DNA from: Rubripirellula reticaptiva
Lineage (GTDB): Bacteria > Planctomycetota > Planctomycetia > Pirellulales > Pirellulaceae
Direction: 5' to 3'
NCBI RefSeq assembly: GCF_007860175.1
Contig: NZ_SJPX01000001.1
Coordinates: forward strand, 1 to 64,000
DNA length: 64,000 nucleotides
How positions within the stretch are numbered: the first letter of the stretch is position 1; each line of letters begins with the position of its first letter. This document shows, one piece after another, positions 15,006 to 64,000 of the stretch. The notes under the pieces were generated by a model, which saw only the letters and a program-made list of their open reading frames with translations, had not been told where the DNA came from and did not search any database. The position numbers were made by a program, and so were the translations under genes.

Positions 15006-16409
15006 TTATGGACCAACACTCTGTCGATCGAGAAGCAACTGCAGTTCTGATGCATCGAGTGCGCCGTCGCGATTCTCATCGAGGAAATTGAACGAGCTCT
15101 TCAGTCGTGGCCCGGCTTCGTCTTGTGCAATCTTGCCATCACTGTTTCGGTCGAATCTTTGGAGGAATATTTGCACAGCTTGGCGCTTGTTACCCGGGAC
15201 GCCGAAATCTCGCACGGATGCCTCAGCAGCTTGACCCGCGAGCAGCAGACTGAGGAAGGTGTTGTCTTCGAACCGATCCCGATCGCTGTCTCCTTGCCGA
15301 AGTGCAACCAGCTTCAGCGAGGGGATGACATACATACGGCACTTCCCCGCGCCAAGCGCGGCAAACAGGTCAGGGCAGCCGTCCCAGTAAATCCAACCGG
15401 CCTTGTCTCTTGGCTCCGTCCTCTGCGCGGCAACCCCCACCGAACCTTGCCCGCCCGGCTGGTTCAACCACAAAGCCAATCCATGTCCGGGGTTCGCATC
15501 GCTTGGCTTCATGAGTTCGTGCAGCAAATCCTTCCTGACGATCTGTTTCCCATTCCATTCACCGTCTTGAAGCAACCACTGGCCGTACTTTATCCACTCA
15601 AGCGCGGTCAGGTGTGCGCCGTTAGGGATGTGTGGATTGCCCGACACGTCGTGTACCCAGTCGCCGACCTCCACACCGATCGGATCGAGGATCCGCTGCT
15701 TCAAGTAGTCCAGCGGCGTCTGCTTTCGCGTCGCCAACTTTCGTTTCATGATCTCGCCCAACACGTAGTAGCAACTGGGACCATATTGGAATACCTCGCC
15801 AGGCTCGCGCAACACCGGCACTCCGATCGCGTGCCGATAGAGATCCCGGGCGAGGGTCGGCCGGTCGTGGCCCTGCAAGTTCGTAACATCCTGCACGAGC
15901 CCGGCACTGAGGGTGAGCAGGTGGCGGAGCGTGATCCGACTCTTTCGCGGATGACCATTCCATTCGGTTAGAGTCTTTGCGGCAAGTTCGTCAAAGGATT
16001 CGACCATCCCGTCTTCGATCATCGCTGCAATCACCGGTCCCCAAAATGCCTTGGTGGCACTGTGCAAGTGGGTGGCAGTTTCAGGTCCAAATCCGTTGGC
16101 GTATTTCTCAAAGACGGTCTTGCCGTCAACCAACACCAGCACTGCGCGACCGCCGTTCCTGGCCGAGTACTCGGAGGCTCGCTTGAAATTTCCGGCGGTC
16201 GGCACTACTCCACCATCGTTCGTGTCGATCAAACCTGCCGTTTCGCTGGCATCAGTCTTCGTTGCCGTGCTCTCTCCCTGGGCGAAAGGTTTGGCGTCGG
16301 CGGAGATCGGTGGTTCGGTGCCCCACGTTTTCGGCGCAACAACGAAAAGATAAACGCTAAGCAAAGCGAATGCGAGAAAACTCACAAGTCCAATTCGAAA
16401 ATACTGCAT
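15006..16409 (-). CDS. Serine hydrolase (class C beta-lactamase family) with C-terminal EF-hands
   Basis: 467 residues from ATG 16409; the frame extends 32 residues further but the membrane or signal segment (IGLVSFLAFALLSVYLFVVA) starts here. The beta-lactamase/PBP-like domain spans about 75-400. The nucleophile motif SATK is at 117-120, and YGPSCYYVLG supplies the Tyr-x-Ser region. The C-terminus carries two EF-hand-like calcium loops (DRNSDGKIAQDE and DENRDGALDASE). Such proteins act outside the cytoplasm as esterases or D-peptidases; the substrate is unknown. It is the most distal gene of the leftward arm, 130 bases after the EF-hand esterase, which shares the calcium-loop idea. Confidence 0.85.
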   Translation of the reverse strand: MQYFRIGLVSFLAFALLSVYLFVVAPKTWGTEPPISADAKPFAQGESTATKTDASETAGLIDTNDGGVVPTAGNFKRASEYSARNGGRAVLVLVDGKTVFEKYANGFGPETATHLHSATKAFWGPVIAAMIEDGMVESFDELAAKTLTEWNGHPRKSRITLRHLLTLSAGLVQDVTNLQGHDRPTLARDLYRHAIGVPVLREPGEVFQYGPSCYYVLGEIMKRKLATRKQTPLDYLKQRILDPIGVEVGDWVHDVSGNPHIPNGAHLTALEWIKYGQWLLQDGEWNGKQIVRKDLLHELMKPSDANPGHGLALWLNQPGGQGSVGVAAQRTEPRDKAGWIYWDGCPDLFAALGAGKCRMYVIPSLKLVALRQGDSDRDRFEDNTFLSLLLAGQAAEASVRDFGVPGNKRQAVQIFLQRFDRNSDGKIAQDEAGPRLKSSFNFLDENRDGALDASELQLLLDRQSVGP

Positions 16410-16539
16410 TGCTTGAAGCCTATCGTTATTGAAGATGCGAGTCGCTCGCATCGCTATTTTATCTCTTGGTCGGTGGCAACGATAGCGAGAGTGTTTGCGA
16501 AGCAAGTTCCAGTCTGGGTAGCGTGTCGGTTATGGCGAA

Positions 16540-17613
16540 CTACTTCGCTTCGATCAGTTGCCGAATCAAGAACCGTTCTACCGAACCATCGGGATCATTT
16601 TCAACGTTGATCCCCGGTGCTCGGACGATGCACTGGAGTCCGAGTGCTTGCATAGCTTCCTGTAACTTCAAACCAAGACGCACGTGGTGAACCCAGTCGC
16701 CCTGGGGCGTATCCCTGGTGACTTCCGTATTCCCGTGACCGTACACCATGTAAACCCTGGCCCGATCGTCTCGCGACAGGTGCGTGATCGGCGAAGCGTC
16801 TTTCATCCGCTGCCTCACTACCTTGTCGAAGAGTTCGATTTCACCATCAATCCCAAGGAACGCAGGCAACGCATCGTGGAACGGTAGGTCGGGAACACCA
16901 AACCACTCGCGATAGGTGTGCATGTCATACGTCGATTGGCCATTGAGTGTCGCGGCGGCGAGAATCCGAGTCGACTGACGAGCCACGGGATCGTCGCTGT
17001 TGGGTTGGGCCAGATCGTCATGAAAAGCAAGCCACAAACTGATCCCGGCTCCGGCTGATCCGCCGAAACAGGCAACTCGATTCGAATCGATGTTCCATTC
17101 CTTCGCTCGGTGCCGAATCGTCTGCAGCCCGCGAGCGGCATCGTGCATCATGTTCGGGTAAGGACCGACATCGGAAAGTCGATAGTTCATCGAAGCAAAT
17201 GCAACGCCCGCTTCCTGAAACAGCCTGACCTGTTTCTCGCTCACAGCCGATTTATCGCCGCCGCGAAAGCCACCGCCATGAATGAAGATAACCAGGGGTG
17301 TTGGTTCTTTGGCGTCAGGAACAGGCCACAGATCGAAACGTTGCCGCTCATGCTCGCCGTAGGCAATATCGGCGTGCGGCGACACGGGCCGACGAGCTTC
17401 GGTTCGACTGCGGCGATCTTGCTGAAAATTACGATACTTATCCATCGTCAGACGCCCGTCGTGATCGGCATCACTTTCGGGGAAGCGTTTCAAAAACGCC
17501 GCCAACTTCTCTACCGTCGACAAAGTAGATCGGGTTGGCTCCTGAGCCAGCAGGAATGAACTGAAAGGCAAGCTGATCAGTACGAACAGGCAGCAGGTCA
17601 ATCGACATTGCAT
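16540..17613 (-). CDS. Secreted alpha/beta-hydrolase esterase with N-terminal EF-hand-like loop
   Basis: 357 residues from ATG 17613. A signal peptide (MQCRLTCCLFVLISLPFSSF) is followed by one EF-hand or dockerin-like loop (DADHDGRLTMDK, about 48-59; position 12 is Lys, so calcium binding may be weak). The catalytic domain has the oxyanion motif HGGGFRGG, MNYRLSD, the nucleophile in GGSAGAG and a late acid/His region, as in hormone-sensitive-lipase and BD-FAE type esterases. Such enzymes often remove acetyl or feruloyl groups from polysaccharides, which would suit the glycan theme of the cluster (inference). It follows the ThuA gene on the same strand after 86 bases. Confidence 0.85.
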   Translation of the reverse strand: MQCRLTCCLFVLISLPFSSFLLAQEPTRSTLSTVEKLAAFLKRFPESDADHDGRLTMDKYRNFQQDRRSRTEARRPVSPHADIAYGEHERQRFDLWPVPDAKEPTPLVIFIHGGGFRGGDKSAVSEKQVRLFQEAGVAFASMNYRLSDVGPYPNMMHDAARGLQTIRHRAKEWNIDSNRVACFGGSAGAGISLWLAFHDDLAQPNSDDPVARQSTRILAAATLNGQSTYDMHTYREWFGVPDLPFHDALPAFLGIDGEIELFDKVVRQRMKDASPITHLSRDDRARVYMVYGHGNTEVTRDTPQGDWVHHVRLGLKLQEAMQALGLQCIVRAPGINVENDPDGSVERFLIRQLIEAK

Positions 17614-19124: not shown

Positions 19125-19129
19125 AGTGT

Positions 19130-20592: not shown

Positions 20593-22512
20593 CTACTCGG
20601 TTCGACGATGCGTGAAGGGGTAGCTGGTGACGATCGCTGTGACCACTGTCTGCATGCGGTAGCCATCCTGAGCAAGCTCCCGCATCAAATCATCCAACAC
20701 AATTTCGTCATACCCCTCCAGCCTTCGACACAGGGCATAGGCTAACAATTTCTCAACCAGGTTGCGTGAAAAGTCATCGAGGCGTCCGGCAATCATGACC
20801 TTTAATTCCTGCGGACTCGAAAAACGACTTCCATCAGGAAGCTCACCCGAGGCGTCAATCGGCTGACCGTTTTCGTCCTGATCACGCCAGCGACCGATGG
20901 CATCGAAATTCTCCAGACCAAACCCGATCGGGTCGAGTAACTGATGGCAATTGGCGCAGACCGGATCGGTGCGGTGCAGTTCCGTGCGCTCGCGTAGGGT
21001 TAGATTGGCAACCGACTGCTGGTCCTGTTTCTCCAATGCCGGAACGTTTGGCGGAGCAGATGGCACATGCTCCCCGAGCAATTGTTCAAGCACCCACACA
21101 CCGCGAATGACGGGACTGGTACGGTTGGGGAAGGACGTCGACGCGAGAACTCCAGGCATTCCCAATATCCCTCCCCGATTTTTATTGGTCAGCTTGACCT
21201 TGCGCATCTCGGCGCCAGCAACGGTTTTGCCTAGCCCATAGATGGAGGCCAGACTCTCGTTGAGGAACGTGTAATCGCTATCAATAAAACGAGCGACACC
21301 TTGGTTCTCACGCACGATACTCTCGAAAAAGAGACGCACTTCGTCGTACATCGCCGCGCGCATTTTTCCCGTCATCTCGGGGAACTTGGCGGGATCAAAT
21401 GTCTTGCTGTCTAAATCCCCAACACGAAGCCACTGAGCACCGAAACCGTCAAACAGGGCTCGCGAACGAGGATCCTCCAGCATGCGTTTCACTTGCATTT
21501 TCAGGATCGTCGGCTCGTGTAGCTTTCCGGAGCCAGCCAGCGTCATCAGCTCATCGTCAGGCATCGTGGCCCACAGCAGATACGACAATCGCGAGGCGAG
21601 TTGATAATTGTCAAGTGGAACAATCTCAGCCTCGGATTCAAATTCTTCAGCCGGAGTGATGAACAGGAACTGTGGAGAAACGAGCATTGCCTTGAGCATC
21701 AAACGCAAGGCCGCCGGATACGAGAGTTCGTTTTGTTGTCCCAAGTCGAAGACGTCCAAGAGCACCTTGAGCTCGCCATCGGATGGCGGTCGACGGTAAG
21801 CTCTCTTCGCCAGCGACTGGGCTACCTTTCGTGCCTCTCTCCGAGAGTCATTCTTTGACGCGGGAGCTTCGCCAAAATGTCGCTGTTGGAACTGCGTGGG
21901 CGGGGAATCGTCGGGTGCCAAAACTTGGTCTAACACTTCATCGGCGATTGAAAGATACTGCTCGAGTTGAAGCGGTGAGAGCGAATTAAGATATCCCTCA
22001 CCACTGACCTCATCTGGCAAGCCAGCGGCAATCTTCGGATCGACACCGAATAGATCGCGCAGCGTGTTGCTGTATTCCGTTTTAGTCAAACGACGAATAA
22101 CAAACGTTCCAGGATCTTTGGGGCTGAGGTATTTGACCTTGTCCAGCCATTTCATGAACATCTGGCGTTCTTCATCGGTCGGCTGCTCCAAACCATCCGG
22201 TGGCATGTCGTGTGTCTTCACTCTGGCCGCCGCTTTCTTCCACTTTTCACTGAAGGCAGCATGCCCTGGAGTATCCAGGGCTGGGGTGAAGCTGAGGCCG
22301 GCCTCTGTCGGTCGACTGTTCTGGTGACACTCCAGGCAATACGTTTTGATAAAAGGAGTGACTCGTTGACGAAAGAACTTCTCAGAGTCGGCTTTCCCCT
22401 CAGCCAACGCCTCCTCAGCCGCGGACTGAGCCCAGCACGTCTTGGGACTAATCCACAACACGCCCAGGACCATCACGGCAAGTGTGCCACGGAGAAAACG
22501 TGCTTTTATCAT
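20593..22512 (-). CDS. DUF1587/DUF1595/DUF1592/DUF1588/DUF1585 heme protein
   Basis: 639 residues from ATG 22512 (upstream in-frame ATGs at 22530 and 22539 are possible). After a signal peptide ending near CWAQS comes a PSCyt-type heme motif CLECH (59-63). Then follow DUF1587 ([17 protein letters not shown], about 140), DUF1595 (about 237), DUF1592 ([19 protein letters not shown], about 300), DUF1588 (about 447) with a second heme motif [14 protein letters not shown] (about 517), and DUF1585 to the end. Two CXXCH sites suggest a periplasmic multiheme redox protein. Its DUF1552 partner lies directly downstream. The gap before it (22540-22666) holds palindromic repeats. Confidence 0.92.
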
Positions 22513-22590
22513 TGTCACTTGAAAGCTCATCACACCCATCTTTGTATCTGTCCATTGTAGTCATTGCTCGTTAAAGCGGCATGCCGTAAG

Positions 22591-22666: not shown

Positions 22667-23770
22667 TCAGGATTTTTGCAAGGCCTCAGCGATTCGCGTC
22701 GCGACGAGATCCCTGGGATGGGGAAAGACTGCTCCGTAGGGTAGCGTCGTCAGAATCACGCAGATTGAATCCGTTGACGGGTCGGCCCAGCAAATCGTTC
22801 CTGTTGATCCAGTGTGCCCGAAGGTTTCATCACTCAGGTGAGGCGTATTGCCGATTTGCCCGAGATCAAACCCAAGACCTCGTGGTTGAATGTTCGGTGA
22901 ATTCTGATTGCTGATTATCAGCTTGATGGTTTCAGGCTTGAGGATCCGTCCGGTCGAATGCAGAAACTCGCGTAGGAATCGAGCGACATCTTCCGCCGAA
23001 CCGTGCGCAGTCCCCCAAGGAGCCCCAAGCTTTCTCCAGTACGGACTGTTCCAGTCCCAAGACTTCGTCGACGGATCGCCCGCGCCCGACTCAGGAGCAG
23101 CCCAATCGACCTGATTCATCAAGACGTCAGAGATTTTGAACGCCCCGAGCCCCATCGCCGAACGCGTCATCCGCAGCGGCTTGAAGATCCGCTCGTGCGT
23201 TAAGTCTGCAATCGAACGACCGCTAATCCGCCGGGCGACTTCTGTGGCCAGCAAAATTGCCATGCTTGAATAGCTGTATCGGCTACCGGGCTCGAACAGC
23301 AGCGGTGTCTTGACCGCCGCGGCAACGAACTCGGCAAGCGAAGCATGCGACGCGCGCAGTCGGGCGTTCTCGGGAAGTTGATCGGGAAGCCCCGAGACAT
23401 GCGTCATCAACTGGCGGATCGTGATCTTCTCGCAACCGTCGCCTTGAAATTCGGGAAGGTATCGCTGCACGCGATCATCGAGCTCAAAGCGACCATCGTC
23501 GAAAAGCTTCATCACGGCGGCAATCGAGATCGTTTTTGAAATCGACGCCAACAAGAACATTGCGTCGGTGTCACGCGCTAGGCCATACGTTCGCGAAAAG
23601 ACATCCGAGCCCTGCTGGACGTAGATGGCACTCGCTTGAATCTCCCCTTGCTCGGCAGCATTGGCTAGAATTCTGCAAGCGCTTTCAAGCCGCGACTCGT
23701 CCATACCAGCTCCCGCGCGCGGGCAAATCGCCAGAGCCAGACCACTTCCCAGAAAGATTCGTCGTTTCAT
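22667..23770 (-). CDS. Serine hydrolase, beta-lactamase/PBP-like
   Basis: 367 residues. A short twin-Arg-like N-terminus (MKRRIFLGSGLALAICP) suggests export. The nucleophile motif is SISK (76-79). The family pattern continues with FDDGRFELDDRVQRYLPEF, ITIRQLMTHVSGLP, PGSRYSYSSMAILLATEV (Tyr-x-Ser) and a late HTGSTGTICWADP, where class C enzymes have their KTG-like HTG motif. This is a complete esterase/peptidase-type enzyme with unknown substrate. It lies between the WD40-cytochrome gene (112 bases) and the DUF1592 gene (about 150 bases). Confidence 0.88.
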   Translation of the reverse strand: MKRRIFLGSGLALAICPRAGAGMDESRLESACRILANAAEQGEIQASAIYVQQGSDVFSRTYGLARDTDAMFLLASISKTISIAAVMKLFDDGRFELDDRVQRYLPEFQGDGCEKITIRQLMTHVSGLPDQLPENARLRASHASLAEFVAAAVKTPLLFEPGSRYSYSSMAILLATEVARRISGRSIADLTHERIFKPLRMTRSAMGLGAFKISDVLMNQVDWAAPESGAGDPSTKSWDWNSPYWRKLGAPWGTAHGSAEDVARFLREFLHSTGRILKPETIKLIISNQNSPNIQPRGLGFDLGQIGNTPHLSDETFGHTGSTGTICWADPSTDSICVILTTLPYGAVFPHPRDLVATRIAEALQKS

Positions 23771-34274: not shown

Positions 34275-34496
34275 GGGCGAGTACCCAGAAAGGCAGGGTT
34301 TAAGGTGGGCAGTTCATAACAGGCGGGACTGCCATTCTACACCAAGCGTGGCTGTCAAACCGTAGGGGACGCCAGCACAGGTCTTTTCCACTGTCTCGTT
34401 TCGTGCGGTACTTCTACCACAACAGCAGCGATTACCGTGCATGCACAAGTAATTGAGGGCATACTGGTAGGGCGATGTCTTTTGAGAACGGGAAAG
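34275..34496. promoter_or_regulatory. Divergent intergenic control region of the supercluster
   Basis: 222 bases separate the start codons of the leftward and rightward arms, so both promoters should be here. I see no convincing -35/-10 or -24/-12 pair and no obvious operator palindrome. GGGAAAG lies directly before the rightward ATG at 34497. Function is inferred from the divergent layout. Confidence 0.45.
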
Positions 34497-37466
<2,970 letters not shown>

Positions 37467-38936: not shown

Positions 38937-39025
38937 ATGATTCAATCTTCTCGAGTCGCCGCTGGAGTTTCGCCAAAGTGAAGCCACATCTTTCGCACTC
39001 CTTCGCCACGACTGACGTGTTCCCT

Positions 39026-45157: not shown

Positions 45158-45183
45158 CGGATCGCTTTTCGCCAACTAAATGC

Positions 45184-45206
45184 AGGACGGACAGGAAGTC
45201 CGTCCT
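45184..45206. repeat. Perfect GACGGAC hairpin in an intergenic gap
   Basis: AGGACGGAC (45184-45192) and GTCCGTCCT (45198-45206) form a perfect 9-bp stem around AGGAA. No T-run follows, so a simple intrinsic terminator is unlikely. The sequence is related to the elements at 22591 and 40527. Confidence 0.65.
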
Positions 45207-45296
45207 ACGTTCGCCCACAACAACGTGATCCTCAACGACCACACGCTCTCAGACTGGCCACTACCAGATATGCCCTCACGAAAAACGGCAACCTCT

Positions 45297-49500: not shown

Positions 49501-49681
49501 CGTCGAAAGCGATGCCGGATTGCACAAACGGGATCAAATTACACGAGCCTTTGAAATAGCTTTCGGAAGGCAGCCAACAGAAAGTGAATTGATCCTTGCG
49601 ACCGACTTTGTGCATCAGCAAGGATTGTTTGGCCTATGCAGATCACTACTTAACTCGAATGAGTTTATTTATGTGGATTGA
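46574..49681 (+). CDS. PSCyt1-DUF1549-DUF1553 heme protein with NPCBM-like module
   Basis: 1035 residues from ATG 46574. A hydrophobic export segment ([15 protein letters not shown]) precedes PSCyt1 with CVRCH (67-71). DUF1549 from about 186 has [30 protein letters not shown] and [12 protein letters not shown] (about 372). Between about 480 and 668 lies an inserted beta module ([54 protein letters not shown]) matching the style of NPCBM carbohydrate-binding domains. DUF1553 runs from about 756 to the end. Its DUF1501 partner starts four bases after its stop. Confidence 0.92.
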
Positions 49682-51106: not shown

Positions 51107-53841
51107 ACATGAAAAGAAGAATGTCAAATCAGCGTTTGTCTGCCTTGCTCTTCGCAGTCATCTTGGCTTGTGAAGTGCAAGCAGTTGACTTCACGCAAGA
51201 CATCGAACCAATCATTCAGGCTCATTGCATCGATTGTCATGGACCGGATGAACAAGAGAGTCTGTTCCGACTTGATCGCTTGGCAGACATGCTTTCCGGT
51301 GGGAACTCGGGCGAGCCTGCCGTGGTGCCAGGAAAACCAGACGAGAGTTTTCTGCTGAAGTTGATTCGGCACAAAGAAACCGGCAAGGAAATGCCGCCGG
51401 ATGAATCATTATCGAAAGGCGAAATAGATTTAGTCGAACAATGGATCGCCGACGGAGCAACGACTCCGGAAAGCTACGGACCAGCAAAAAGGAAAGTCGA
51501 TCTTTCGCACTGGGCGTTCCAGCCGGTAAAGCGTTCCCAAGCAAGTGGTATCGACAAGTTCGTTCACGACAAGTTGACAGACAACGATTTAACGCAATCG
51601 CCCGCTGCGGAACGACGTGTTTTGATTCGACGGTTGTATCTCGTGATGCTTGGCATTCCGCCATCACCGCAGCAGGTCGAGACATTCGTGACGGATGATA
51701 GTGACGATGCTTGGCAAACGCTTGTTGAACGTGTTCTTGCCAGTTCGCATTACGGTGAACGTTGGGCGACGTACTGGCTGGACCTGGTACGGTTCGGGGA
51801 GACGCATGGCTATGAAATGAATCGCGAGCGACCGACGGCGTGGCAGTATCGCGATTGGGTCATCCAGTCGCTGAACGACGACAAACCCTACAACGAATTC
51901 GTTCGCCAGCAGATCGCCGGTGATGCGCTGGGAGCGGACGTCGCTACAGGGTTCCTAGTGGCCGGTCCCGTCGATCAAGTCAAAGGTTCCGACCCGAAAC
52001 TGCGACAGGCTCAGCGAATGAACGAGCTCGACGACATGATCAACACCACCGGCACAGCGTTTTTGGGACTGACGACTGGCTGCGCGCGTTGCCACAATCA
52101 CAAATTCGATCCCATCAGCCAGCGCGATTACTACTCGATGCAAGCCGTGTTCGCCGGCGTCGAGCACGGTGATCGCTCGCTGCCGCCATCGCCGGAAACC
52201 AAACAGCAGATCGCGACGCTGGATGCGGAGATCGCAGAACTGAATGACCGGCTGAAGAAATTCATGGCCGAAGATGAATCGAAACTACGTCCGTCCGTCA
52301 ACGCCAAGCAGAACGAAGAGGTCTTCGAGAAACGAAAAGCACGCTTCATTCGCTTCACGATTCAGAAAACCACTGGCGGCGCAGGCTGTATTGATGAGTT
52401 GGAAGTTTACGCTGAAGGAAGTAACGTTGCTCTGGCTGACTGCGGTGCCAAAGCGACATCGTCCGGCGACTTCGTGCATCCAAAACATAAACTGTTGCAC
52501 ATCAACGATGGACGTCACGGCAATGATCGCAGTTGGATTGTCGATTCTGCGAAAGGCGGCTGGGTCCAAATTGAACTCGCCGCACCGGCCATCATCGACC
52601 GCGTCGTCTGGGGCCGCGATCGTGACGGACATTTTGCCGACCGGTTGCCGATCGATTACCACATCGAATCCGCTGTGGAAGCGGGCCAATGGGAATTGTT
52701 AGCGTCATCGGCTGATCGAACAGCTTACTCGGGTAGCAAGCCTTCCGAGCCAGAGTATCAGTTCGCGAAGTTTCCGGATGCGGAAGCGGTGCAGGGTGAG
52801 ACGTGGTTGAAGCGGTTGCAGACAGCTCGCGACGAGAAAAAGGAACTCGAAGGTTCGACACTCGTTTATGCCGGCACGTTTTCACAACCCGGTCCCACGC
52901 ATCGTTTGTATCGCGGCGAACGAGATGCGAAGCGCGAGCAGGTTGCTCCGAATGCGATCGAAGTCTTCACATCGCTGAATCTGTCGTCCGACGCGCCCGA
53001 GCGTGACCGTCGACTGGCGTTGGCGAATTGGGTTGCCAGCAAGGACAATCCGTTAACGGCACGCGTGATCGTCAATCGGTTGTGGCAGTTCCACTTCGGC
53101 ACCGGTATCGTCGACACGCCCAGCGACTTCGGACTCAACGGAACACCGCCGAGTGACCCGGAGCTGCTCGACTGGATGGCCAGCGAACTGATGGCTCACG
53201 ATTGGTCGTTGAAACATATTCATCGACTGATTTTGAATTCTGACACATGGCGTCAAAGCAATCGACCGAATGCGGATGCCGTGCGAGTCGATGCGACATC
53301 GCGTCTACTGTGGCGATTCCCGCCTCGACGTTTGGAGGCGGAAGCGATTCGCGATTCCATCCTCGCCGTAACCGGAGTGCTTGACCTCAAAAATGCTGGT
53401 GGTCTGGGGTTCAGTCCGTTTGAAGTGGAGATGGAGAATGTGCGTCACTATCACGCGAAGAAAACGTTTGGCCCAGCCGATTGGCGACGGATGATATACA
53501 TGACGAAAGTGCGACAGGAACGTGAGCAGGTGTTCGGCGCCTTCGATTGCCCCGATGCGAGCATGGTGGTGCCGAAACGAAGTCGCTCGACCACACCGCT
53601 GCAGGCACTGAATCTGCTTAATAGCGAATTCGTGATGCAACAAGCCGAACTGTTTGCGCGGCGATTGGAAAAGGAATCCGATACACGGCCGGAGCAGATC
53701 ATACGAGCCTGGCAGTTGTGTTTTCAGCGAGATCCGACAGACGAAGAACTGGCCGATAGCGAAGCGTTCATTCAACAAGAAGGCATCCAGCAGTTCACCC
53801 GCGCGATGCTGAATGCGAATGAATTCGTGTTCATTCCGTAG
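51103..53841 (+). CDS. PSCyt1-DUF1549-DUF1553 heme protein with discoidin-like module
   Basis: 912 residues; ATG 51103 overlaps the DUF1501 stop. A signal peptide (LSALLFAVILACEVQA) precedes PSCyt1 with CIDCH (42-46). DUF1549 begins near 147, with HYGERWATYWLDLVRFGETHG and CARCHNHKFDPI (about 327). A module at about 410-545 (RFIRFTIQKTTGGAGCIDEL, GWVQIELAAPAIIDRVVWG) resembles F5/8-type C domains. DUF1553 from about 640 has VIVNRLWQFHFGTGIVDTPS. The DUF1501 gene downstream (53931) starts after a gap holding a hairpin, giving a heme-Tat pair. Confidence 0.92.
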   Translation: MNMKRRMSNQRLSALLFAVILACEVQAVDFTQDIEPIIQAHCIDCHGPDEQESLFRLDRLADMLSGGNSGEPAVVPGKPDESFLLKLIRHKETGKEMPPDESLSKGEIDLVEQWIADGATTPESYGPAKRKVDLSHWAFQPVKRSQASGIDKFVHDKLTDNDLTQSPAAERRVLIRRLYLVMLGIPPSPQQVETFVTDDSDDAWQTLVERVLASSHYGERWATYWLDLVRFGETHGYEMNRERPTAWQYRDWVIQSLNDDKPYNEFVRQQIAGDALGADVATGFLVAGPVDQVKGSDPKLRQAQRMNELDDMINTTGTAFLGLTTGCARCHNHKFDPISQRDYYSMQAVFAGVEHGDRSLPPSPETKQQIATLDAEIAELNDRLKKFMAEDESKLRPSVNAKQNEEVFEKRKARFIRFTIQKTTGGAGCIDELEVYAEGSNVALADCGAKATSSGDFVHPKHKLLHINDGRHGNDRSWIVDSAKGGWVQIELAAPAIIDRVVWGRDRDGHFADRLPIDYHIESAVEAGQWELLASSADRTAYSGSKPSEPEYQFAKFPDAEAVQGETWLKRLQTARDEKKELEGSTLVYAGTFSQPGPTHRLYRGERDAKREQVAPNAIEVFTSLNLSSDAPERDRRLALANWVASKDNPLTARVIVNRLWQFHFGTGIVDTPSDFGLNGTPPSDPELLDWMASELMAHDWSLKHIHRLILNSDTWRQSNRPNADAVRVDATSRLLWRFPPRRLEAEAIRDSILAVTGVLDLKNAGGLGFSPFEVEMENVRHYHAKKTFGPADWRRMIYMTKVRQEREQVFGAFDCPDASMVVPKRSRSTTPLQALNLLNSEFVMQQAELFARRLEKESDTRPEQIIRAWQLCFQRDPTDEELADSEAFIQQEGIQQFTRAMLNANEFVFIP

Positions 53842-53930: not shown

Positions 53931-55388
53931 ATGACTCCATTTCTGAATCGACGACACTTTCTGACTCAGGCGACGACGGGACTCAGCAGCATCGCGCTGG
54001 CGAGTTTGCTGGATCAGCAACGGTTGCTTGCCGACACTGCACCGATTCGTCCGAAGATCGATCCCGCGAAACCGTTCGCTGCTCGTGACACGCATCATCC
54101 TGCGGCGGCGAAGAATGTGCTGGTGATCTTTTGCGCGGGTGCGTGCAGCCAGATCGACACGTTCGACTATAAGCCCGAACTGATCAAACGCCATGGCCAG
54201 CCCATGCCGGGCGCCGAGTCGCTGGTGACATTTCAGGGCGAACAAGGCATGCTGACGAAGAGTCCGTGGGAATTCAAACCGCGTGGCGAATCCGGCAAGA
54301 TGATTTCGGAACTTGTGCCGCAACTTGCGGAACTCGCCGATGACATGTGTTTCATCCATTCGTTGACCGGAAAGACCAACACGCATGGGCCGGGCGAAAA
54401 CTTCATGTCGACCGGTTATACGCTCGATGGTTTCCCCAGCATGGGCGCGTGGGCGACATGGGCATTGGGAACCGAGAACGAAAACCTGCCGGCTTACGTC
54501 GCGATTGCCGATCCACGTGGCACGCCGCAGTCGAGCGTCAATAATTGGGGACCGGGTTTTCTGCCCGCAGCCTTTCAGGGAACCGAGTTCAGCGCCCTCA
54601 AACCGCTAGACAACCTCGACATTCCGCCGGGTGTCAGCGCAAAAACTGATCGAGCGACGCGAAGTTTTCTGGAACGCATGAACCAGCGTCATCTCGAACA
54701 ATTTCCGGGCGACAGCGAACTAGCGGCGAGAATTTCCAGTTATCAACTCGCCGCGCGGATGCAGTTGAGCGTTCCCGAAGTCACCGACTTGTCGAGCGAA
54801 CCGCAGAGTATTTTGCGCGAATACGGAGCGGACGATTCGCAGAACACCTTGAAGGCACAGTTTGCGAAGAACTGTATCCTCGCGCGGCGGTTGATTGAAA
54901 ACGGCGTCCGTTTTGTGCAACTGTTCAATGGCGCCTATCAGACTGGTGGCGAAGGCGTCAGTAACTGGGACGGACACAAATCGCTTCAAGAACAGTACAG
55001 CAAACATGGCCCGGTGCTGGATCAACCTTGCGCGGCTCTGCTTCGAGACATGAAGCGGCGTGGGTTGTTGAAGGATACGTTGGTCGTTTGGATGACCGAG
55101 TTCGGTCGCATGCCGACATTTCAAAAGGGAGCCAGCGGACGCGATCACAATCCAGACGGATTCACGGCATGGATGATGGGAGCTGGCGTGAAAGCACCGT
55201 TCACTTACGGGGCGACCGATGAGTTCGGTTACAAAGCCGCCGAAAACATCAGCACCGTCTACGATTTCCACGCCACGATTCTGCATCTGTTAGGTCTGAA
55301 CCACAAGCAACTCACCTACTACCACAATGGCTTCGAGCGTCGCCTGACAGACGTGCATGGTCACGTCATCAAGGAGATACTGGCGTGA
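53931..55388 (+). CDS. DUF1501 protein with Tat-like signal (right arm, third copy)
   Basis: 485 residues. The N-terminus [19 protein letters not shown] is twin-arginine. Marks: [92 protein letters not shown] and [11 protein letters not shown]. Its stop overlaps the GTG start of the DUF1592 gene (GTGA 55385-55388), an unusual case where DUF1501 is coupled to DUF1592 rather than to DUF1549. Confidence 0.92.
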
Positions 55389-57937
55389 GCAGCTCGGCAT
55401 CCCGCGGCCACTTGAAGGTCTCCTTGTTTAACGGAGTGTGCTTGCTGTTTTGCATCTGCGCATCGAAGTCAAACGCGTCGGAAATCCCCAAGCCAATTGG
55501 TGAACTCATCCGGAAGACCTGCGTCGACTGTCATGACGGCGACTCGGCAGAAGCTGGACTGGACCTCACATCACTGACGTTTGATCTGGCTGACCGACGA
55601 CTTCGCGAGCGTTGGATTCTGATTCATGATCGAGTCAAATCGGGTGAGATGCCGCCTGATGATTCAAGTCTCTCAGATGGTGATCGACAGTCACTGGTGA
55701 AGACACTGCACGACGTTATCGGGAAAGCGGATCGTGAGGATGTTCTTGCAAACGGTCGCGGTCCGTTGCGACGGCTCAACCGTGACGAATACGAACAGAA
55801 TTTGCGGGACGTGCTGAAACTGCCGCTGCTCGATATTCGTGACATGCTGCCGGAAGATCGCGTTGCCCATCGGTTCAACAAGACTGCCGCGGCACTCGAC
55901 ATGTCCCGCGTGCAGTTGGCTGCCAACCTCGATGCCGCCGACGCGGCGCTGCGACAGGCGGTGGCGGGCGGACCGGAGCCGCCACCGGTCACCAGGTATC
56001 ACGCGGCGGGGACGCAGCTTTTTTCGGCCACCAGCACCTTTGGTGAACGCGAAGCGATGTTCTTTGCGAAGGACAACAAGGCGGTTGATACGACAGAACT
56101 CGACAATCTTAAAGACGATCCCGCACTGGAACTGGCGTTGTTCCGGTCGGCTCACTGGCCCTATTTCGGATATCCGCGTGGATTCGTTGCGAAACTCCCG
56201 GGCGAATACCGGGTCCGCTTTTCGGCGCGGGCCGTCTTGCAGACCGAAGGGTATCAGCTCAAACCGGCAACCGATCCGGTGCCGATGACGTTTCGCGCGC
56301 GAAAGCCGTCTGGCCCGGATGTCTCTGGCGATATTCGGGCAACGGGTGGAATCATCGACATTCAGCCCGAGCCCGCCGTTTATGAGACGACCATTCGCTT
56401 ACTTCCAACAGAGACGTTCGAGTACAGCCTGTTAGGTCTGCCAGTTCCGCTGGCACGTAACGTCAACGGTGGCCCGCCGACGTATCGTTATCCGCCGTTT
56501 CCCGATGGTGGCCAACCGGGGGTTGCCTTTCAATGGCTGGAAGTCGAAGGTCCGCTCCCGCCGGAGACATGGCCGCCGCCGTCACACCACGTCTTGTTTG
56601 ATGATTTTGGAGCGGACATTCAATCCACCAACCCGCAAGAAGACTCGCGGCGTCTACTTCGGCGCTTCGTAGAGATCGCTGCTCGCATGCCTGTACCGGA
56701 AGAAGCACTGCTCCGGTTCGAGCAACTCATTCTCAAGCGACTCGAGCAGGGGAGCCCGTTCCCTGAGGCGATGCTCGCCGGTTACAAGGCGTTTCTCTGT
56801 TCCAGCCACTTCCTTTATCTGCGAGAACCTGCTGATCCAGCGACTGGCAATCTCGATCAATATGCCATTGCCTCACGACTATCGCATTTCCTAACGAACA
56901 CGCGGCCGGACCCGGCGTTGATGGAACTGGCCGGCGCGGGAAAGCTCCGCGATGCTGACACACTTCGCCGTGAGACCGATCGGCTGATCAATAGTCCCGG
57001 CTTCGATCGGTTCGTTGATGCTTTTACCGACTACTGGCTCGACCTGCGCAACATGCGACGCGACGAACCGGATATTCGTCTGCATCCCGAGTACCGCTTT
57101 GATGAGTACCTGATCGAGTCGATGGAGCGCGAAACTCGCACCTTCTTCACGGCGATGATTCGCGACAATCTCCCAGCGAGTGTTCTAGTCGATGCCGACT
57201 TTGTTTACGCCAACGATCGTCTTGCGCGGCATTACTGTTTGAAACCGCTCAGCGGGTCCAAAATGCAAAAGGTCGTGTTACCCGATGACAGTCCCTACGG
57301 CGGTCTGTTGACGCAGGCGGCCATTTCGAAAGTGACCGCCAACGGCACATCGACGTCGCCGGTCATCCGCGGCGCGTGGATCATGGAGCGTTTGATCGGC
57401 CAGCCACCCCCGCCTCCGCCAGCGAGCGTCCCCGCTGTCGAGCCGGACATTCGTGGCGCGAAGACGATTCGTGAGTTGTTGGCTCTGCATACGAAATCGG
57501 AATCGTGTGCTGGCTGCCATGCGCGGTTCGATCCCGTTGGTTTGGCATTGGAAAACTTCGATGTCCTGGGCGGCTGGCGAACACGTTATCGCGGACTCGA
57601 AGCGGGAGAACGCATCTCCGGGATAGACCGCGCCGGCCACGATTTCGCCTACGCACTTGCTGACACGGTCGATGCCAGCGGCCGTTTGCTGGATGGTCGC
57701 CGCTTTCAGGACATTCACGAACTGAAGGCCATCCTTGCAGGCAATCCACGTCAACTGGCCCGCAATCTTCTGCACCAGTTCACGCTTTATGCGACCGGAA
57801 CTCCGGTCCGGTTCTCAGATCGCGAGGAGATCGAATCAATGCTCGATGCCTGCGAAGCAGATGGATATCGCGTTCGTGATCTCGTCCATGCATTGGTGCA
57901 GAGCAGGATCTTTCTCGGAAAGGAAGGCAGCCGATGA
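55385..57937 (+). CDS. DUF1587/1592/1588/1585 heme protein (right arm, second copy)
   Basis: 850 residues from GTG 55385, overlapping the DUF1501 stop; the signal peptide ([18 protein letters not shown]) follows. PSCyt heme motif CVDCH (46-50), then DUF1587 ([17 protein letters not shown], about 131), a DUF1595-like helical region (about 430), DUF1592 ([18 protein letters not shown], about 492), DUF1588 (about 637) with [12 protein letters not shown] (about 708), and DUF1585. The section corresponding to the palindrome in the copy at 39026 is short and normal here. The stop overlaps the DUF1552 start (ATGA). Confidence 0.92.
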
Positions 57938-59223
57938 TAGGCCGCTATCAAATCAATCGCCGTCAGTTTCTTCGCGGTGCGGGAGTCACGCTTGCGCTAC
58001 CGTTTCTGGACAGCCTGCGTTCAGTATCAGCAAAGCAACCGGATGCAGAACTTCCGCGGCGAATGCTGTTGATCTCGAACAACCTCGGGGTCCTGCCGCA
58101 ACAGTTCTTTCCGGAAACACCCGGGCGTGATTACGAACTCTCACCGTACCTGCAGGCTCTTGCCGAGTTCCGCGACGACTTCACGGTGATCAGTGGCCTC
58201 TCACACCCCGATGTCGACGGTGGTCACAGCACAGAGAACTGCTTTCTCACGGCAGCCCGTGGCCCGACCAAGAGTGGCTTTCGCAATACAATCTCGCTCG
58301 ATCAATTCGCCGCCGAACGCCTGGGACCCGTGACGCGGTTCCCGACGCTCAATCTCGGCGTGAACATCGACAAGGCGAATCGCAGTCTTTCCTGGACGCG
58401 AGACGGTGTGCTGCTGCCCGCCGAAGACAGTGCGTCTGCTCTGTTTCGCAAGATGTTCATCCAGGGCGATCAGGCTGCTGTAAAACACCAGCTCCATAAA
58501 CTCGACGAACGCGGCAGCATTCTCGATACGTTGCTGGATGATACGCGGCAGTTCCGCAGCAATCTCGGTCGCGACGATCAATCACGGCTCGACCAGTACC
58601 TGACGTCCGTCCGCGAAATCGAAGAGCGACTGCAAACAGCTCGCCAGTGGGAACTGCGCCCGAAACCGATAACTGATCAGCAACCACCGGACGACATTCG
58701 CGACCAGAAGTTGTTCTTCGAGAAGTTTGACCTGATGCTGTCGATGGGGCGGCTGGCGCTGGAATCGGATTCCACGCGGATCGTCACGCTGATGGTCGAT
58801 GCCTTTGCGACTCCCGTGTTCAAACTGCATCCCGATCAGAACACAACCGATGGCTACCACAATCTCAGTCATCATGGTCAGTCAGAATCGAAGGTCCAAC
58901 AACTCATCGACGCCGATCATCAGCAGATGACGCTGCTCCACAAGCTGTTCGGACAGCTTGCCGAAACTCGTGAAGGGGAAGACCGGTTGCTGGACCGCAC
59001 GATGATCCTGTTCGGTAGCAACATGGGGGACGCCAACACCCACGACAATAACAACCTGCCGATTCTGCTCGCTGGCGGCGGACTCAAGCATGGCCAGCAC
59101 CTCGCCTTCCGGAGCGATCGCAACAAACCACTGTGCAACCTGTTCGTCACGATGCTGCAGTACCTTGGCGTTGAAACAGAGTCCTTCGGCAGCAGCACTG
59201 GCAATTTGAATGAGATGACCTAA
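57934..59223 (+). CDS. DUF1552 protein (right arm, second copy)
   Basis: 429 residues; ATG 57934 overlaps the DUF1592 stop, the tightest heme-partner coupling in the window. The signal INRRQFLRGAGVTLALPFLD is twin-arginine. Marks: [79 protein letters not shown] and the C-terminal LFGSNMGDANTHDNNNLPI with LLAGGGLKHG. Length is typical of the family. Confidence 0.92.
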   Translation: MIGRYQINRRQFLRGAGVTLALPFLDSLRSVSAKQPDAELPRRMLLISNNLGVLPQQFFPETPGRDYELSPYLQALAEFRDDFTVISGLSHPDVDGGHSTENCFLTAARGPTKSGFRNTISLDQFAAERLGPVTRFPTLNLGVNIDKANRSLSWTRDGVLLPAEDSASALFRKMFIQGDQAAVKHQLHKLDERGSILDTLLDDTRQFRSNLGRDDQSRLDQYLTSVREIEERLQTARQWELRPKPITDQQPPDDIRDQKLFFEKFDLMLSMGRLALESDSTRIVTLMVDAFATPVFKLHPDQNTTDGYHNLSHHGQSESKVQQLIDADHQQMTLLHKLFGQLAETREGEDRLLDRTMILFGSNMGDANTHDNNNLPILLAGGGLKHGQHLAFRSDRNKPLCNLFVTMLQYLGVETESFGSSTGNLNEMT

Positions 59224-59272: not shown

Positions 59273-61126
59273 ATGAGAGACGACATGAGAGATACAAGCA
59301 CCTTACTCCTAACGCTTGTTGCGGCCCTGATGCTCGCGCCGCTGGCTGTGTTGCGAGCCGCCGATCGGTCCTTGGATTCACCAGACATTGTCGTGTGCGG
59401 TGCCACGCCCGCGGGCATTGCCGCGGCACTGAATGCTGCTGAAGGCGACCGAAGCATTTGGCTGGTCGAGCCCACGGGGCGAATCGGTGGCATGATGACA
59501 CACGGCCTCTCGCATTCGGATTTCCATAGCTTCGAAGCACTCAACGGGCCTTTTCTGCTGTTTAGTCAGCGAGTCCTAAAGCACTACCAGGCTACTTATG
59601 GTGAAGACTCTGCGCAAGTCCAAGACAGCTGGCAGGGAACCCATGGTGAGCCTTCAGTCAACCTGCTGATCTTTCAACAGATGCTCGCCGAACGGCCGAC
59701 AATCACAGTCCTAACCAACCACCGTCTGGTCGAAGTTGACGTTGAGAACTCGACCATCACCGCTCTGCATTTTGTGCTTCCGGATTCAAAGAAAGTCACG
59801 GTCAAGCCGCGGCTGGTCATCGATGCCACTTACGAAGGCGACCTGCTGGCAGCAGCGAAGATTCCGTACCGCGTGGGCCGCGAGGCGAAGTCAGAGTATT
59901 CAGAAACGCTCGCGCCGGAAGCTGCCGACGCCGAACTGCAGGGTTACAACTTCCGTCTATGCATGACTCAGAACCCGACGAATCACGCACCTATTCCTGT
60001 CCCCGACAATTACAACCGAGAGGACTATGCGGCGATCATTCCTCTGGTGAAAGCCGGGCAGTTTGACGCTGCCTTCGGCTATCCCGGCCGTCGCTTCATA
60101 CTCAAGGCACATCTTCCGGTGATGCCTAACGGCAAGCACGACATCAACGATGTCTCACAGGGACTCGTTCGTCTTTCGCTGCCAGGTCAACATCACGAGT
60201 ATCCCGAGGGCAACCTCGCCACCCGCCGCTTGATAGAGAAGAAGCATCTCGACTGGCAGCTCGGCCTGATCCATTTCGTCCAGACCGATCCCGAACTGCC
60301 TGAGGCATTTCGAAAGGAAGCCGCGACGTGGGGTCTATGCCGCGATGAGTTTGCGGACACCGGCCACATCCCACCGCAAATCTACGTTCGAGAAGGTCGC
60401 CGCATGGTGGGCTTGCGAGTCTACACCGAAGCCGACACCGAATACGCCCCCAACGACGCCCGTGCCCGGTTGCATCTCGACGCCATCGCGGTCGGAGAAT
60501 ACAGTCACAACTGCCACGGCACAGGCCACGAAGGACCACCTATCGGCGGACGACACACGGGCGAATTCTACAAGGGCGTTGCTCCCTATCAAATTCCCTT
60601 TGGCGTGCTGGTGCCGAAGAAGATTCGCAATTTGCTGGTTCCGACAGCCTGCAGCGCAAGCCATGTCGGTTTCTGCGCTCTGCGACTCGAACCAATCTGG
60701 ATGTCGCTTGGAGGCGCTGCTGGGTTTGCAGCCGACATGGCGCTGGCTGAGAGCGTCTCTGTGCAGGAGGTCGATGTCGAAGCATTAAAACGCCGTGTTT
60801 GGTCGAGCGGCGGAGCAACGATCCACGTGAGCGACGTGCCTCCGAGCCACCCAGACTTTATCCCCGTGCAATGGTGGGGCAGCCTTGGCGGCTTGCATGG
60901 AATCGAGCCCGCTCCGAAAAAACCAGGCGCGCGAGGCAAGCATATCGTTAGTCAGTATTACGAAGCGTTTCCTGGCCACTCCATCAAGCTCGACCAGCCA
61001 CTGGATGAGGAACTTAAGACTCGCTGGAATCAACTGGCTCGCCAACACGGCCTGCCGGAGTCCAATAACAGCACAACCCGCGGCGACTGGATTCGAGCTG
61101 CATTTGCGGGCGCAAAGAAAAGGTGA
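59273..61126 (+). CDS. FAD-dependent oxidoreductase (second copy, no golvesin domain)
   Basis: 617 residues from ATG 59273 (another ATG at 59285). A signal peptide (LLLTLVAALMLAPLAVL) is followed by DIVVCGATPAGIAAALNAA, LVEPTGRIGGMMTHGLSH, VIDATYEGDLLAAAKIPY with VGREAKSEYSE, and the closing ASHVGFCALRLEPIWMSLGG. These match the copy at 41529 motif for motif, so they are paralogues, but this one ends without the golvesin-like domain and instead has a short tail (SGGATIHVSDVPPSHPDF). It again follows a DUF1552 gene, as an apparent fixed companion. A flavin oxidase or dehydrogenase acting on a sugar is likely (inference). Confidence 0.88.
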   Translation: MRDDMRDTSTLLLTLVAALMLAPLAVLRAADRSLDSPDIVVCGATPAGIAAALNAAEGDRSIWLVEPTGRIGGMMTHGLSHSDFHSFEALNGPFLLFSQRVLKHYQATYGEDSAQVQDSWQGTHGEPSVNLLIFQQMLAERPTITVLTNHRLVEVDVENSTITALHFVLPDSKKVTVKPRLVIDATYEGDLLAAAKIPYRVGREAKSEYSETLAPEAADAELQGYNFRLCMTQNPTNHAPIPVPDNYNREDYAAIIPLVKAGQFDAAFGYPGRRFILKAHLPVMPNGKHDINDVSQGLVRLSLPGQHHEYPEGNLATRRLIEKKHLDWQLGLIHFVQTDPELPEAFRKEAATWGLCRDEFADTGHIPPQIYVREGRRMVGLRVYTEADTEYAPNDARARLHLDAIAVGEYSHNCHGTGHEGPPIGGRHTGEFYKGVAPYQIPFGVLVPKKIRNLLVPTACSASHVGFCALRLEPIWMSLGGAAGFAADMALAESVSVQEVDVEALKRRVWSSGGATIHVSDVPPSHPDFIPVQWWGSLGGLHGIEPAPKKPGARGKHIVSQYYEAFPGHSIKLDQPLDEELKTRWNQLARQHGLPESNNSTTRGDWIRAAFAGAKKR

Positions 61127-62927: not shown

Positions 62928-62940
62928 AAGCTGCCACGCG

Positions 62941-64000
62941 ATGAACCCCACCTTCATGCTACTTGCTTCCCTGCTCCTCTCGCGGTTCGCCACGCTGCAC
63001 GCTGATGAGCCCGCAACACTCTGGGACAAGCGTGCGTCTTTGCTCAAGACAGCCGAAATACCAGTACTTAAGGATGTGCGTTTCTCGGTGATCAAGCCTT
63101 ACGAGTTTGAAAGCGACGGTTATCGATTCCTGCATGGTGCGGCAATTTGTTTTCACAAGGGGCGGCTCTACTCATCGTTTGGTCACAACCAGGGCGGCGA
63201 GAACACCGACACGGAGGAAGCCAGGTTTTGCGTAAGCGAAGATGAAGGCGAGAGATGGAGCAAAGTGAGCACGATCGACAAAGGCAAAGGCCCAATCGGC
63301 GTGAGTCATGGCGCATTTCTTTCGCACAACGGAACACTCTGGGCTTTTCAGGGAGCCTACACCGGTACGATGAGCGGCGTTCATACACGGGCTTATCTTC
63401 TCGATGAGGCCAGCGCTCAATGGCAGCCGAAAGGCACTGTCATCGAAGACGGTTTCTGGCCCATGCAGGAACCTCAAAAGATGGACGACGGCAACTGGAT
63501 CATGGCCGGGCTCAAGGTCGGTGACAGCAACCCGGCCATCGTTGCCATCAGCCATGCCGATGATTTCACCAAGTGGGATTTGGTGCCCATCCCGCAATCC
63601 AAGAACCTCAAGAAGATGTGGGGCGAATCCACTGTCATCGTCAGCGACAAACAGATCACAAACATTTCTCGCTACGGCGATAAAGCGGAAGCTCTTGTTG
63701 CAACCAGCGAAGACTACGGTCGCACCTGGAGTGAGATGCGTCCCAGCAATCTGCCGATGACCACCAGCAAACCAATCGCTGGTACGTTGAGCACCGGTCA
63801 GCGTTATCTCGTCTGCACCACCACAGCGGACAGCGGCAAGCGACGTTCGCCCTTGACCATCGCTGTCAGCAGATCAGGCGAGACCTTGTTCAGCAAAGTC
63901 TTCGTCATTCGCCATGCTGAATTCACCGATGGCCCCGGCGAGTCGCATCCAAAAGCCGCGCTCTCTTATCCGTATGCAATCGAGCACGACGGAAAGCTCT
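62941..64000 (+). CDS. Sialidase/BNR-repeat-like secreted protein, cut by the window edge
   Basis: The frame from ATG 62941 stays open to the edge (353 residues visible). A signal peptide (FMLLASLLLSRFATLHA) is followed by a beta-propeller of the sialidase type. Two Asp-box-like turns are visible (SEDEGERWSK at about 100 and SEDYGRTWSE at about 255), with FLHGAAICFHKGRLY, GVSHGAFLSHNGTLWAF and WGESTVIVSDKQI as propeller strands. The fold is shared by exo-sialidases and other BNR-repeat glycosidases, so the sugar cannot be named. It starts 13 bases after the sulfatase stop, which pairs desulfation with glycoside processing. Confidence 0.78.
   Translation, partial: MNPTFMLLASLLLSRFATLHADEPATLWDKRASLLKTAEIPVLKDVRFSVIKPYEFESDGYRFLHGAAICFHKGRLYSSFGHNQGGENTDTEEARFCVSEDEGERWSKVSTIDKGKGPIGVSHGAFLSHNGTLWAFQGAYTGTMSGVHTRAYLLDEASAQWQPKGTVIEDGFWPMQEPQKMDDGNWIMAGLKVGDSNPAIVAISHADDFTKWDLVPIPQSKNLKKMWGESTVIVSDKQITNISRYGDKAEALVATSEDYGRTWSEMRPSNLPMTTSKPIAGTLSTGQRYLVCTTTADSGKRRSPLTIAVSRSGETLFSKVFVIRHAEFTDGPGESHPKAALSYPYAIEHDGKL

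What the first reader, a model, noticed from the sequence alone, without database searches (positions are those of the whole stretch)
15006..64000. A 49-kb divergent supercluster of exported heme, DUF1501/DUF1552 and FAD proteins
Two long arms read away from 34275-34496 and contain four DUF1549/1553, three DUF1592, six DUF1501, three DUF1552 and two FAD oxidoreductase genes, plus a WD40-cytochrome, ThuA, esterases, a sulfatase and a sialidase-like protein. Nearly all carry export signals. These DUF families have no established reaction, so this repeated set is a strong candidate for an undescribed extracytoplasmic oxidative glycan-degradation system.
Basis: partly seen in the sequence, partly recalled or inferred. 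Interest (0 to 1): 0.8.

Follow-up and report, generated by a model that had tools for sequence, protein, structure and literature searches.

The report
Array of exported heme-protein gene modules
A planctomycete has lined up several separate, well-conserved sets of exported heme-protein genes of unknown reaction in one place; the line-up itself looks local to this lineage, but one three-gene set is shared with little change between two bacterial phyla.

Summary
The gene content is confirmed except the 'sialidase-like' protein, which belongs to a family without Pfam or NCBIfam model. The locus is an outlier: 18 of 148 genome hits to five families lie here, 7 in the next largest cluster. The 'one divergent system' reading is not supported. 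The left-arm core (DUF1501 genes, Ig-like DUF1549/1553 protein, WD40-cytochrome) is a conserved free-standing operon; it faces the right arm in 0 of 8 relatives with sequence upstream. The right arm is a string of modules that recur elsewhere in other orders. In this genome the cytochrome genes are not significantly nearer to sulfatases than rotated controls. Fixed gene pairs and a possible carbohydrate role are already in print. New here: (i) a DUF1592–DUF1552–new-family operon in Planctomycetota and Verrucomicrobiota, 67-85% identical across the phyla where RpoB is 47-56%, with Verrucomicrobiota monophyly rejected (p-AU 0.0037); (ii) a CX4CH heme-like motif where PSCyt1 usually lies in 7 of 12 divergent DUF1549 proteins; (iii) DUF1552 is a distant relative of DUF1501 that lacks its N-terminal Ser/Asp/Lys motif. 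The reaction is unknown; a heme-coupled exported oxidoreductase is my guess.

The parts
15006..16505 (-). beta-lactamase/esterase fold with EF-hand
   Evidence: PF00144, PF13202
16540..17652 (-). BD-FAE alpha/beta-hydrolase esterase
   Evidence: PF20434
17700..19124 (-). ThuA-domain protein
   Evidence: PF06283
19130..20530 (-). DUF1552 (HX1), twin-arginine N-terminus; pair with 20593-22539
   Evidence: PF07586; RRFC
20593..22539 (-). D1592a: PSCyt1-PSD3-PSD5-PSD4-PSCyt3-PSD2, two CXXCH
22667..23770 (-). beta-lactamase-fold protein
   Evidence: PF00144
23883..25316 (-). WD40 protein with PSCyt1 heme domain (left operon)
   Evidence: PF07635, PF00400
25271..29893 (-). Ig-like protein with PSCyt2/PSD1, CX4CH heme-like motif plus one CXXCH (left operon); start moved in from 30199 by reading the sequence
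   Evidence: PF07583, PF07587; motifs
29919..31334 (-). DUF1501 (1501a, left operon)
   Evidence: PF07394 319 bits
31417..32889 (-). DUF1501 (1501b, left operon)
   Evidence: PF07394 279 bits
32886..34274 (-). DUF1501 (1501c, first gene of left operon)
   Evidence: PF07394 295 bits; operon in relatives
34275..34496 (.). divergent intergenic region; arrangement not seen in relatives
34437..37466 (+). PSCyt2b: PSCyt1-PSCyt2-F5/8C-PSD1, two CXXCH (ATG at 34497 also possible)
37491..38936 (+). DUF1501 (1501d), pair of PSCyt2b
38933..41497 (+). D1592b, DUF1592-type protein with two CXXCH; first gene of the three-gene operon found in two phyla
41529..43631 (+). FAD_oxidored with golvesin/xanthan-lyase-like C-terminal domain, lying between D1592b and HX2 here
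43799..45157 (+). DUF1552 (HX2), second gene of the operon
   Evidence: PF07586
45180..46556 (+). new-family protein (unk45; likely start about 45297), third gene of the operon, 1-4 copies per locus elsewhere
   Evidence: no Pfam/NCBIfam match
46574..49681 (+). PSCyt2c: PSCyt1-PSCyt2-NPCBM-PSD1
49685..51106 (+). DUF1501 (1501e)
51103..53841 (+). PSCyt2d: PSCyt1-PSCyt2-PSD1
53931..55388 (+). DUF1501 (1501f)
55385..57937 (+). D1592c, DUF1592-type protein with two CXXCH
57934..59223 (+). DUF1552 (HX3), pair of D1592c
59273..61126 (+). FAD_oxidored (FAD2)
   Evidence: PF12831
61284..62927 (+). sulfatase
   Evidence: PF00884

Best explanation
The region is a lineage-specific array of independently conserved modules, not one system. 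Each module joins a c-type heme protein with one or more twin-arginine partners of the DUF1501/DUF1552 group, which are distantly related to each other and, through DUF1501, weakly to sulfatases. The most widely shared module is D1592b-HX2-unk45, which has moved between Planctomycetota and Verrucomicrobiota. Proposed mechanism, inferred and not shown: the partner is folded with a metal in the cytoplasm and exported by Tat, the heme protein by Sec; the partner's conserved His/Asp site acts on an extracytoplasmic substrate, most likely a sugar or glycan fragment bound by domains inserted in the heme protein; electrons pass over the partner's hemes to the respiratory chain; the third protein docks the complex or presents the substrate. 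Shown here: gene pairing, heme motifs, twin arginines, DUF1552-DUF1501 homology, cross-phylum spread, independence of the arms. Inferred: export route, metal binding, heme loading, electron flow, substrate, complex formation. I put about 0.8 on the module/array part and about 0.3 on the redox-enzyme part.
For: Pairing: 42 of 46 PSCyt2 hits have DUF1501, and 15 of 20 PSD4 hits DUF1552, downstream on the same strand within 4.5 kb; of the 9 misses 8 have the partner upstream and 1 has none. Independence: left operon intact but without the right arm in relatives. D1592b-HX2-unk45 together in 9 of 10 relative contigs. In 80 loci, of 150 unk45 genes 67 have HX2 and 68 another unk45 as nearest upstream gene. 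Transfer: identity to the window in Verrucomicrobiota HX2 77.6-85.2, D1592b 70.1-76.1, unk45 66.7-81.8, RpoB 47-56 in the 12 of 13 genomes with a match; AU test p 0.0037. Kinship: DUF1552 vs DUF1501 hhalign probability 98.1, E 7e-14 (the alignment includes the twin-arginine N-terminus); DUF1501 profile vs sulfatases, E 0.007 at best. Hemes: two CXXCH in 37 of 38 DUF1592 rows and 19 of 20 PSCyt2 rows, and a Met after the first heme in 38 of 38 and 19 of 20; the PSCyt1 part of the PSCyt2 profile matches the diheme protein FoxE, E 1.3e-7.
Against: No direct evidence of any reaction, metal, heme loading or secretion. Some modules do recur side by side: 12 of 80 loci hold an ortholog-grade relative of another window gene, and relatives G012:C187 and G033:C88 carry long arrays, so the array may be more than accident. 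The 80 loci are the best 80 of 388, which favours high identity. Strong constraint could raise identity too, though it would not explain the rejected monophyly. Most rows are MAGs labelled by their submitters; binning errors are possible. DUF1501 keeps a Ser/Asp/Lys motif, which would also fit a plain hydrolase.
Confidence: 0.52

Rival explanations
1. One reading: the whole 49 kb is one co-regulated extracytoplasmic oxidative glycan-degradation system driven from the divergent region.
For: Densest such locus in the genome; short gaps and overlaps between many genes; F5/8C and NPCBM insertions; two relatives with long arrays.
Against: The divergent layout was found in 0 of 8 informative relatives; module order not kept; no catalytic glycoside hydrolase or polysaccharide lyase domain among the 25 genes, only an Ig-like hyaluronate-lyase N-terminal domain at 27.4 bits against a cutoff of 27; sulfatase proximity not significant.
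Confidence: 0.12
2. DUF1501/DUF1552 are hydrolases of the sulfatase/phosphatase kind, and the heme proteins only sense redox state or hold the complex.
For: DUF1501 aligns weakly to sulfatases of solved structure; an N-terminal Ser, Asp and Lys and the WDxH and GRxH motifs are kept in DUF1501, the window's six included.
Against: DUF1552 shows no conserved Ser, Thr or Cys in the N-terminal segment examined, yet is paired with heme proteins in the same way; heme-protein pairing is near-universal in the genome.
Confidence: 0.23
3. The modules are surface or periplasmic electron-transfer or adhesion parts unrelated to glycans.
For: Neighbours of the three-gene operon elsewhere are mixed: LRR-like proteins in 15 of 80 loci, S15- and S9-peptidase-like genes in 5 and 4 of 80 (one representative of each group scanned).
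Against: F5/8C, NPCBM and Laminin_G-type domains in some heme proteins; published carbohydrate-binding associations.
Confidence: 0.13

Closest known systems
Planctomycete-specific cytochrome (PSCyt) genes with adjacent unknown families (PMC5615132, passages read)
   Same: Same domain architectures (PSCyt1-3, PSD1-5), carbohydrate-binding, Big_2, WD40 and F5/8C additions, PSCyt2 and PSCyt3 genes usually next to two different unknown families, high copy number.
   Different: Here: 18 family hits in one locus, a third gene family tied to DUF1592-DUF1552, cross-phylum transfer, CX4CH variant, no significant excess near sulfatases in this genome (the paper reports sulfatases often near PSCyt genes in some lake Verrucomicrobia).
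Alkaline phosphatase/sulfatase superfamily (membership of DUF1501 recalled, not looked up)
   Same: DUF1501 profile aligns weakly to sulfatases, mainly in its C-terminal half; DUF1552 is homologous to DUF1501.
   Different: Twin-arginine N-terminus, fixed heme-protein partner, and in DUF1552 no N-terminal Ser/Asp/Lys motif.
Polysaccharide utilization loci
   Same: Long cluster of exported proteins with some carbohydrate-binding domains and a sulfatase.
   Different: No catalytic glycoside hydrolase or lyase domain and no SusC/SusD domain among the hits of the 25 genes.
FoxE, a diheme protein of solved structure
   Same: Matches the PSCyt1 part (positions 29-119) of the PSCyt2 profile, E 1.3e-7.
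   Different: The match does not extend to the PSCyt2 and PSD1 parts.

Membership tests
PSCyt/PSD gene modules | PSCyt and PSD domains with CXXCH motifs | tested here: met
   the left-arm Ig-PSCyt2 has no PSCyt1 hit and one CXXCH plus CX4CH
PSCyt/PSD gene modules | Adjacent DUF1501 or DUF1552 partner gene | tested here: met
   42 of 46 and 15 of 20 downstream genome-wide; of the seven PSCyt2/PSD4 genes of the window six have the partner adjacent, D1592b has it one gene away
Polysaccharide utilization locus | Catalytic glycoside hydrolase or polysaccharide lyase | tested here: not met
   None among 25 genes
Polysaccharide utilization locus | Induction by a glycan | not testable with these tools
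   Needs culture and expression data
Alkaline phosphatase/sulfatase superfamily (DUF1501, DUF1552) | Profile homology | tested here: inconclusive
   DUF1552-DUF1501 strong; DUF1501-sulfatase weak, best E 0.007, among chance-looking hits; DUF1552 no PDB match up to E 1
Alkaline phosphatase/sulfatase superfamily (DUF1501, DUF1552) | Conserved N-terminal nucleophile motif | tested here: inconclusive
   DUF1501 keeps Ser, Asp, Lys; DUF1552 keeps none of them in the segment examined
MauG/cytochrome c peroxidase-like diheme enzymes | Sequence or fold relation | tested here: inconclusive
   No such match by profile or by fold of D1592b (nothing at E 0.001 or better, model pLDDT 79.8); missing matches are weak evidence
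3-keto-glycoside pathway | Co-location with 3-keto-disaccharide hydrolase genes (PF06439) | tested here: not met
   Five of six tests p 0.68 or more; canonical PSCyt2 at 10 kb 6 of 34, p 0.043 uncorrected

The most novel reading that the evidence does not exclude
D1592b-HX2-unk45 is an undescribed three-part exported heme/metal oxidoreductase, in which a sulfatase-like fold has become a His-ligated redox or lyase centre, and which spreads between Planctomycetota and Verrucomicrobiota and sets what these bacteria can oxidise outside the cell.
Probability: 0.22. Interest if true: 0.8.

Novelty: new variant of a known kind. Interest (0 to 1): 0.45.

Why it matters
Planctomycete cytochrome genes and their DUF partners are numerous (46 PSCyt2, 20 PSD4, 56 DUF1501 and 20 DUF1552 hits in this genome, some of them fragments), and PMC5615132 (passages) states that nothing is known of the function of the PSCyt genes. 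A small operon kept in two phyla at 67-85% identity is a better target for expression and structure work than a 49-kb array, and the CX4CH variant and the DUF1552-DUF1501 kinship give concrete residues to test.

Tried and rejected
Sialidase reading of 45180-46556: no domain. Sulfatase partnership: six rotation tests (5 and 10 kb, three gene classes) all above the rotated mean, none significant, p 0.10-0.53. 3-keto pathway: five of six tests negative, the sixth p 0.043 without correction. Diheme peroxidase kinship: no match. Fold of unk45: model pLDDT 81.6, pTM 0.82, no PDB match at E 0.001 or better, best 0.009. DUF1592 and PSCyt2 families align with each other by profile only over the N-terminal heme part and the stretch after it. 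A literature search on 3-keto, glycoside, DUF1080 and cytochrome listed unrelated papers. Claims of novelty rest on searches of an open-access library; the new gene family has no name that could be searched, and PHROGs and PADLOC were not scanned.
Full report
Observation. The gene at 45180-46556 has no Pfam or NCBIfam match. The genome (7.85 Mb, 13 contigs) has 56 DUF1501, 46 PSCyt2, 20 PSD4, 20 DUF1552 and 21 FAD_oxidored hits, some of them fragments or weak. With the best six FAD hits this gives 148 hits in 61 groups (gaps up to 6 kb); the window group holds 18, the next 7, three of which look like pieces of one broken gene. Seven cytochrome genes in 41 kb is unlikely by a uniform model, P 0.0001; tandem duplication is not modelled.

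Pairing is the rule in this genome, not a feature of this locus. 42 of 46 PSCyt2 hits have a DUF1501, and 15 of 20 PSD4 hits a DUF1552, downstream on the same strand. Of the 9 misses, 8 have the partner upstream on the same strand (the window's left operon among them) and one PSD4 hit has none nearby.

The array is not one conserved unit. The search with the left operon's first gene gave 11 relatives at 68% identity or more; all 11 contigs were fetched and drawn. In 10 of 11 the second DUF1501 gene follows; in 8 of 11 the Ig-PSCyt2 and WD40-cytochrome orthologs follow too (one further contig is cut there, another ends); the third DUF1501 ortholog is present in 2. Three contigs end just upstream (G020, G009, G002) and say nothing about the divergent side. 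In the other 8 none shows PSCyt2b or another right-arm ortholog as divergent neighbour; five of them show a different DUF1501-like gene followed by a PSCyt2-type gene, four of these with a WD40-cytochrome-like gene as well.

The right arm is built of modules. In relatives D1592b-HX2-unk45, with 1-3 unk45 copies, is present in 9 of 10 contigs; in the tenth (G033:C88) unk45 lies beside other modules. G012:C187 holds orthologs of PSCyt2c-1501e-PSCyt2d-1501f, D1592b-HX2-unk45 and D1592c-HX3 in another order with further genes between. In 80 loci from named genomes, the best 80 of 388, the nearest upstream gene of 150 unk45 genes is HX2 in 67, another unk45 in 68, nothing (contig end) in 8 and something else in 7. 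Of 64 strong HX2 genes 52 have unk45 within 150 bp. Where both D1592b and HX2 are seen (53 loci), I saw no clear FAD match between them, unlike in the window. 12 of 80 loci hold an ortholog-grade relative (0.40 of self score or more; sulfatase and WD40 genes left out) of another window gene. unk45 is patchy: 22 of 60 genomes, the own one included, some of them incomplete.

Transfer. Identity to the window in rows labelled Verrucomicrobiota: HX2 median 81.0 (77.6-85.2, n 35), D1592b 73.7 (70.1-76.1, n 28), unk45 73.3 (66.7-81.8, n 45). RpoB of 13 such genomes gives 47-56% in 12 and no match in one. In three near relatives RpoB is 89-91%, HX2 90-91%, D1592b 79-81%. So D1592b, which changes faster than RpoB among near relatives, is far more alike across phyla. 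A tree of joined D1592b and HX2 (55 rows) puts Verrucomicrobiota in two places; holding its 28 rows together against 26 others is rejected, p-AU 0.0037 (the one row titled Proteobacteria was not named in the test). An earlier HX2 tree alone needs 5 label changes, but its starred branches do not rule out one origin. Labels were checked with RpoB for ten more rows: L090, L093, L112 at 48-55%; L075, L078, L080, L066, L111 at 77-84%; L092 and L087 without a match. Limits: loci were chosen for similarity, and most are MAGs.

Proteins. DUF1552 and DUF1501 are homologous by profile (98.1, E 7e-14). DUF1501 touches sulfatases weakly (best E 0.007). In the aligned sets DUF1501 keeps S, D, K, WDxH, EFGR and GRxH; DUF1552 keeps several His, a DxTR motif and NLP, and in its N-terminal segment only R and G. 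DUF1592 rows carry two CXXCH in 37 of 38 and PSCyt2 rows in 19 of 20; a Met after the first heme is kept in 38 of 38 and 19 of 20. The PSCyt1 part of the PSCyt2 profile matches FoxE (E 1.3e-7) and hydrazine synthase alpha (0.0026); a coiled-coil kinase match (0.0013) looks like chance. The window's Ig-PSCyt2 lacks a PSCyt1 hit but has CNSGACHG. The same CX4CH form is in 6 of the 11 other PSCyt2 genes under 200 bits, 5 lack it; only three of the seven CX4CH proteins were scanned with Pfam, and none shows PSCyt1 at that place. WD40-PSCyt1 genes sit next to it in the window, L141 and L143 and are fused with it in L142, 4 of 7. That CX4CH binds heme elsewhere is recalled; two papers holding the term were seen only in a listing.

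Models. unk45: pLDDT 81.6, strand-rich, no PDB match at E 0.001 or better. D1592b: pLDDT 79.8, mostly helical with a strand-rich part near residues 250-410; best hits EngBF (GH101, E 0.0016) and lectin- or CBM-like entries, none at E 0.001 or better, and the output does not say which part of the model matched.

Glycan link. Sulfatases lie within 10 kb of 12 of 34 canonical PSCyt2, 3 of 12 divergent PSCyt2 and 7 of 20 PSD4 genes; rotation means 7.9, 2.7, 4.7; p 0.10, 0.53, 0.16. All are above the mean, none significant. PF06439: one of six tests at p 0.043, the rest 0.68-1.0. This is one genome; PMC5615132 reports sulfatases often near PSCyt genes in lake Verrucomicrobia and an inverse relation of PSCyt and GH density (passages). 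PMC2754498 (passages) cites a suggestion that a stress-induced ECF factor regulates RB10051, a PSD1/PSC2 protein, which points to control other than by glycans. PMC11495043 (passages) uses PSCyt1 only as a cytochrome label.

Verdict. A real outlier made of known kinds of module, read too far as one divergent system; its most interesting part is the small transferred operon with a new third family.

Noticed in passing
window 6286-10359 (+): Hybrid histidine kinase (CHASE3, PAS, receiver) followed by a sigma-54 activator response regulator, outside the array; possible regulator, untested.
   Followed up: no
L126, L125, L065, L098, L099, L078, L103, L108, L110, L082: Gaps of about 600-1000 bp between D1592b and HX2; some hold an unassigned short ORF (203-285 aa families in a few loci).
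   Followed up: no
contigs of G005, G006, G017, G011, G008 fetched: The left operon faces another DUF1501-like plus PSCyt2-type gene set in five relatives, four of them with a WD40-cytochrome-like gene.
   Followed up: partly
G000:C3:169072-169947: DUF1501 pieces with stop codons, probably one broken gene, close to intact PSCyt2-DUF1501 pairs.
   Followed up: no
L128:12781-14049 and 14 similar genes: LRR-like protein in 15 of 80 loci of the three-gene operon, 14 on the operon's strand (one representative scanned).
   Followed up: partly
L086: Record titled Proteobacteria falls among mainly Verrucomicrobiota rows in both trees; probably a mislabelled bin.
   Followed up: no
L142:3651-8909 (-): One 1753-aa frame fuses PSCyt1-WD40 with CX4CH-PSCyt2-PSD1, joining the two kinds of left-operon gene in one protein.
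   Followed up: yes
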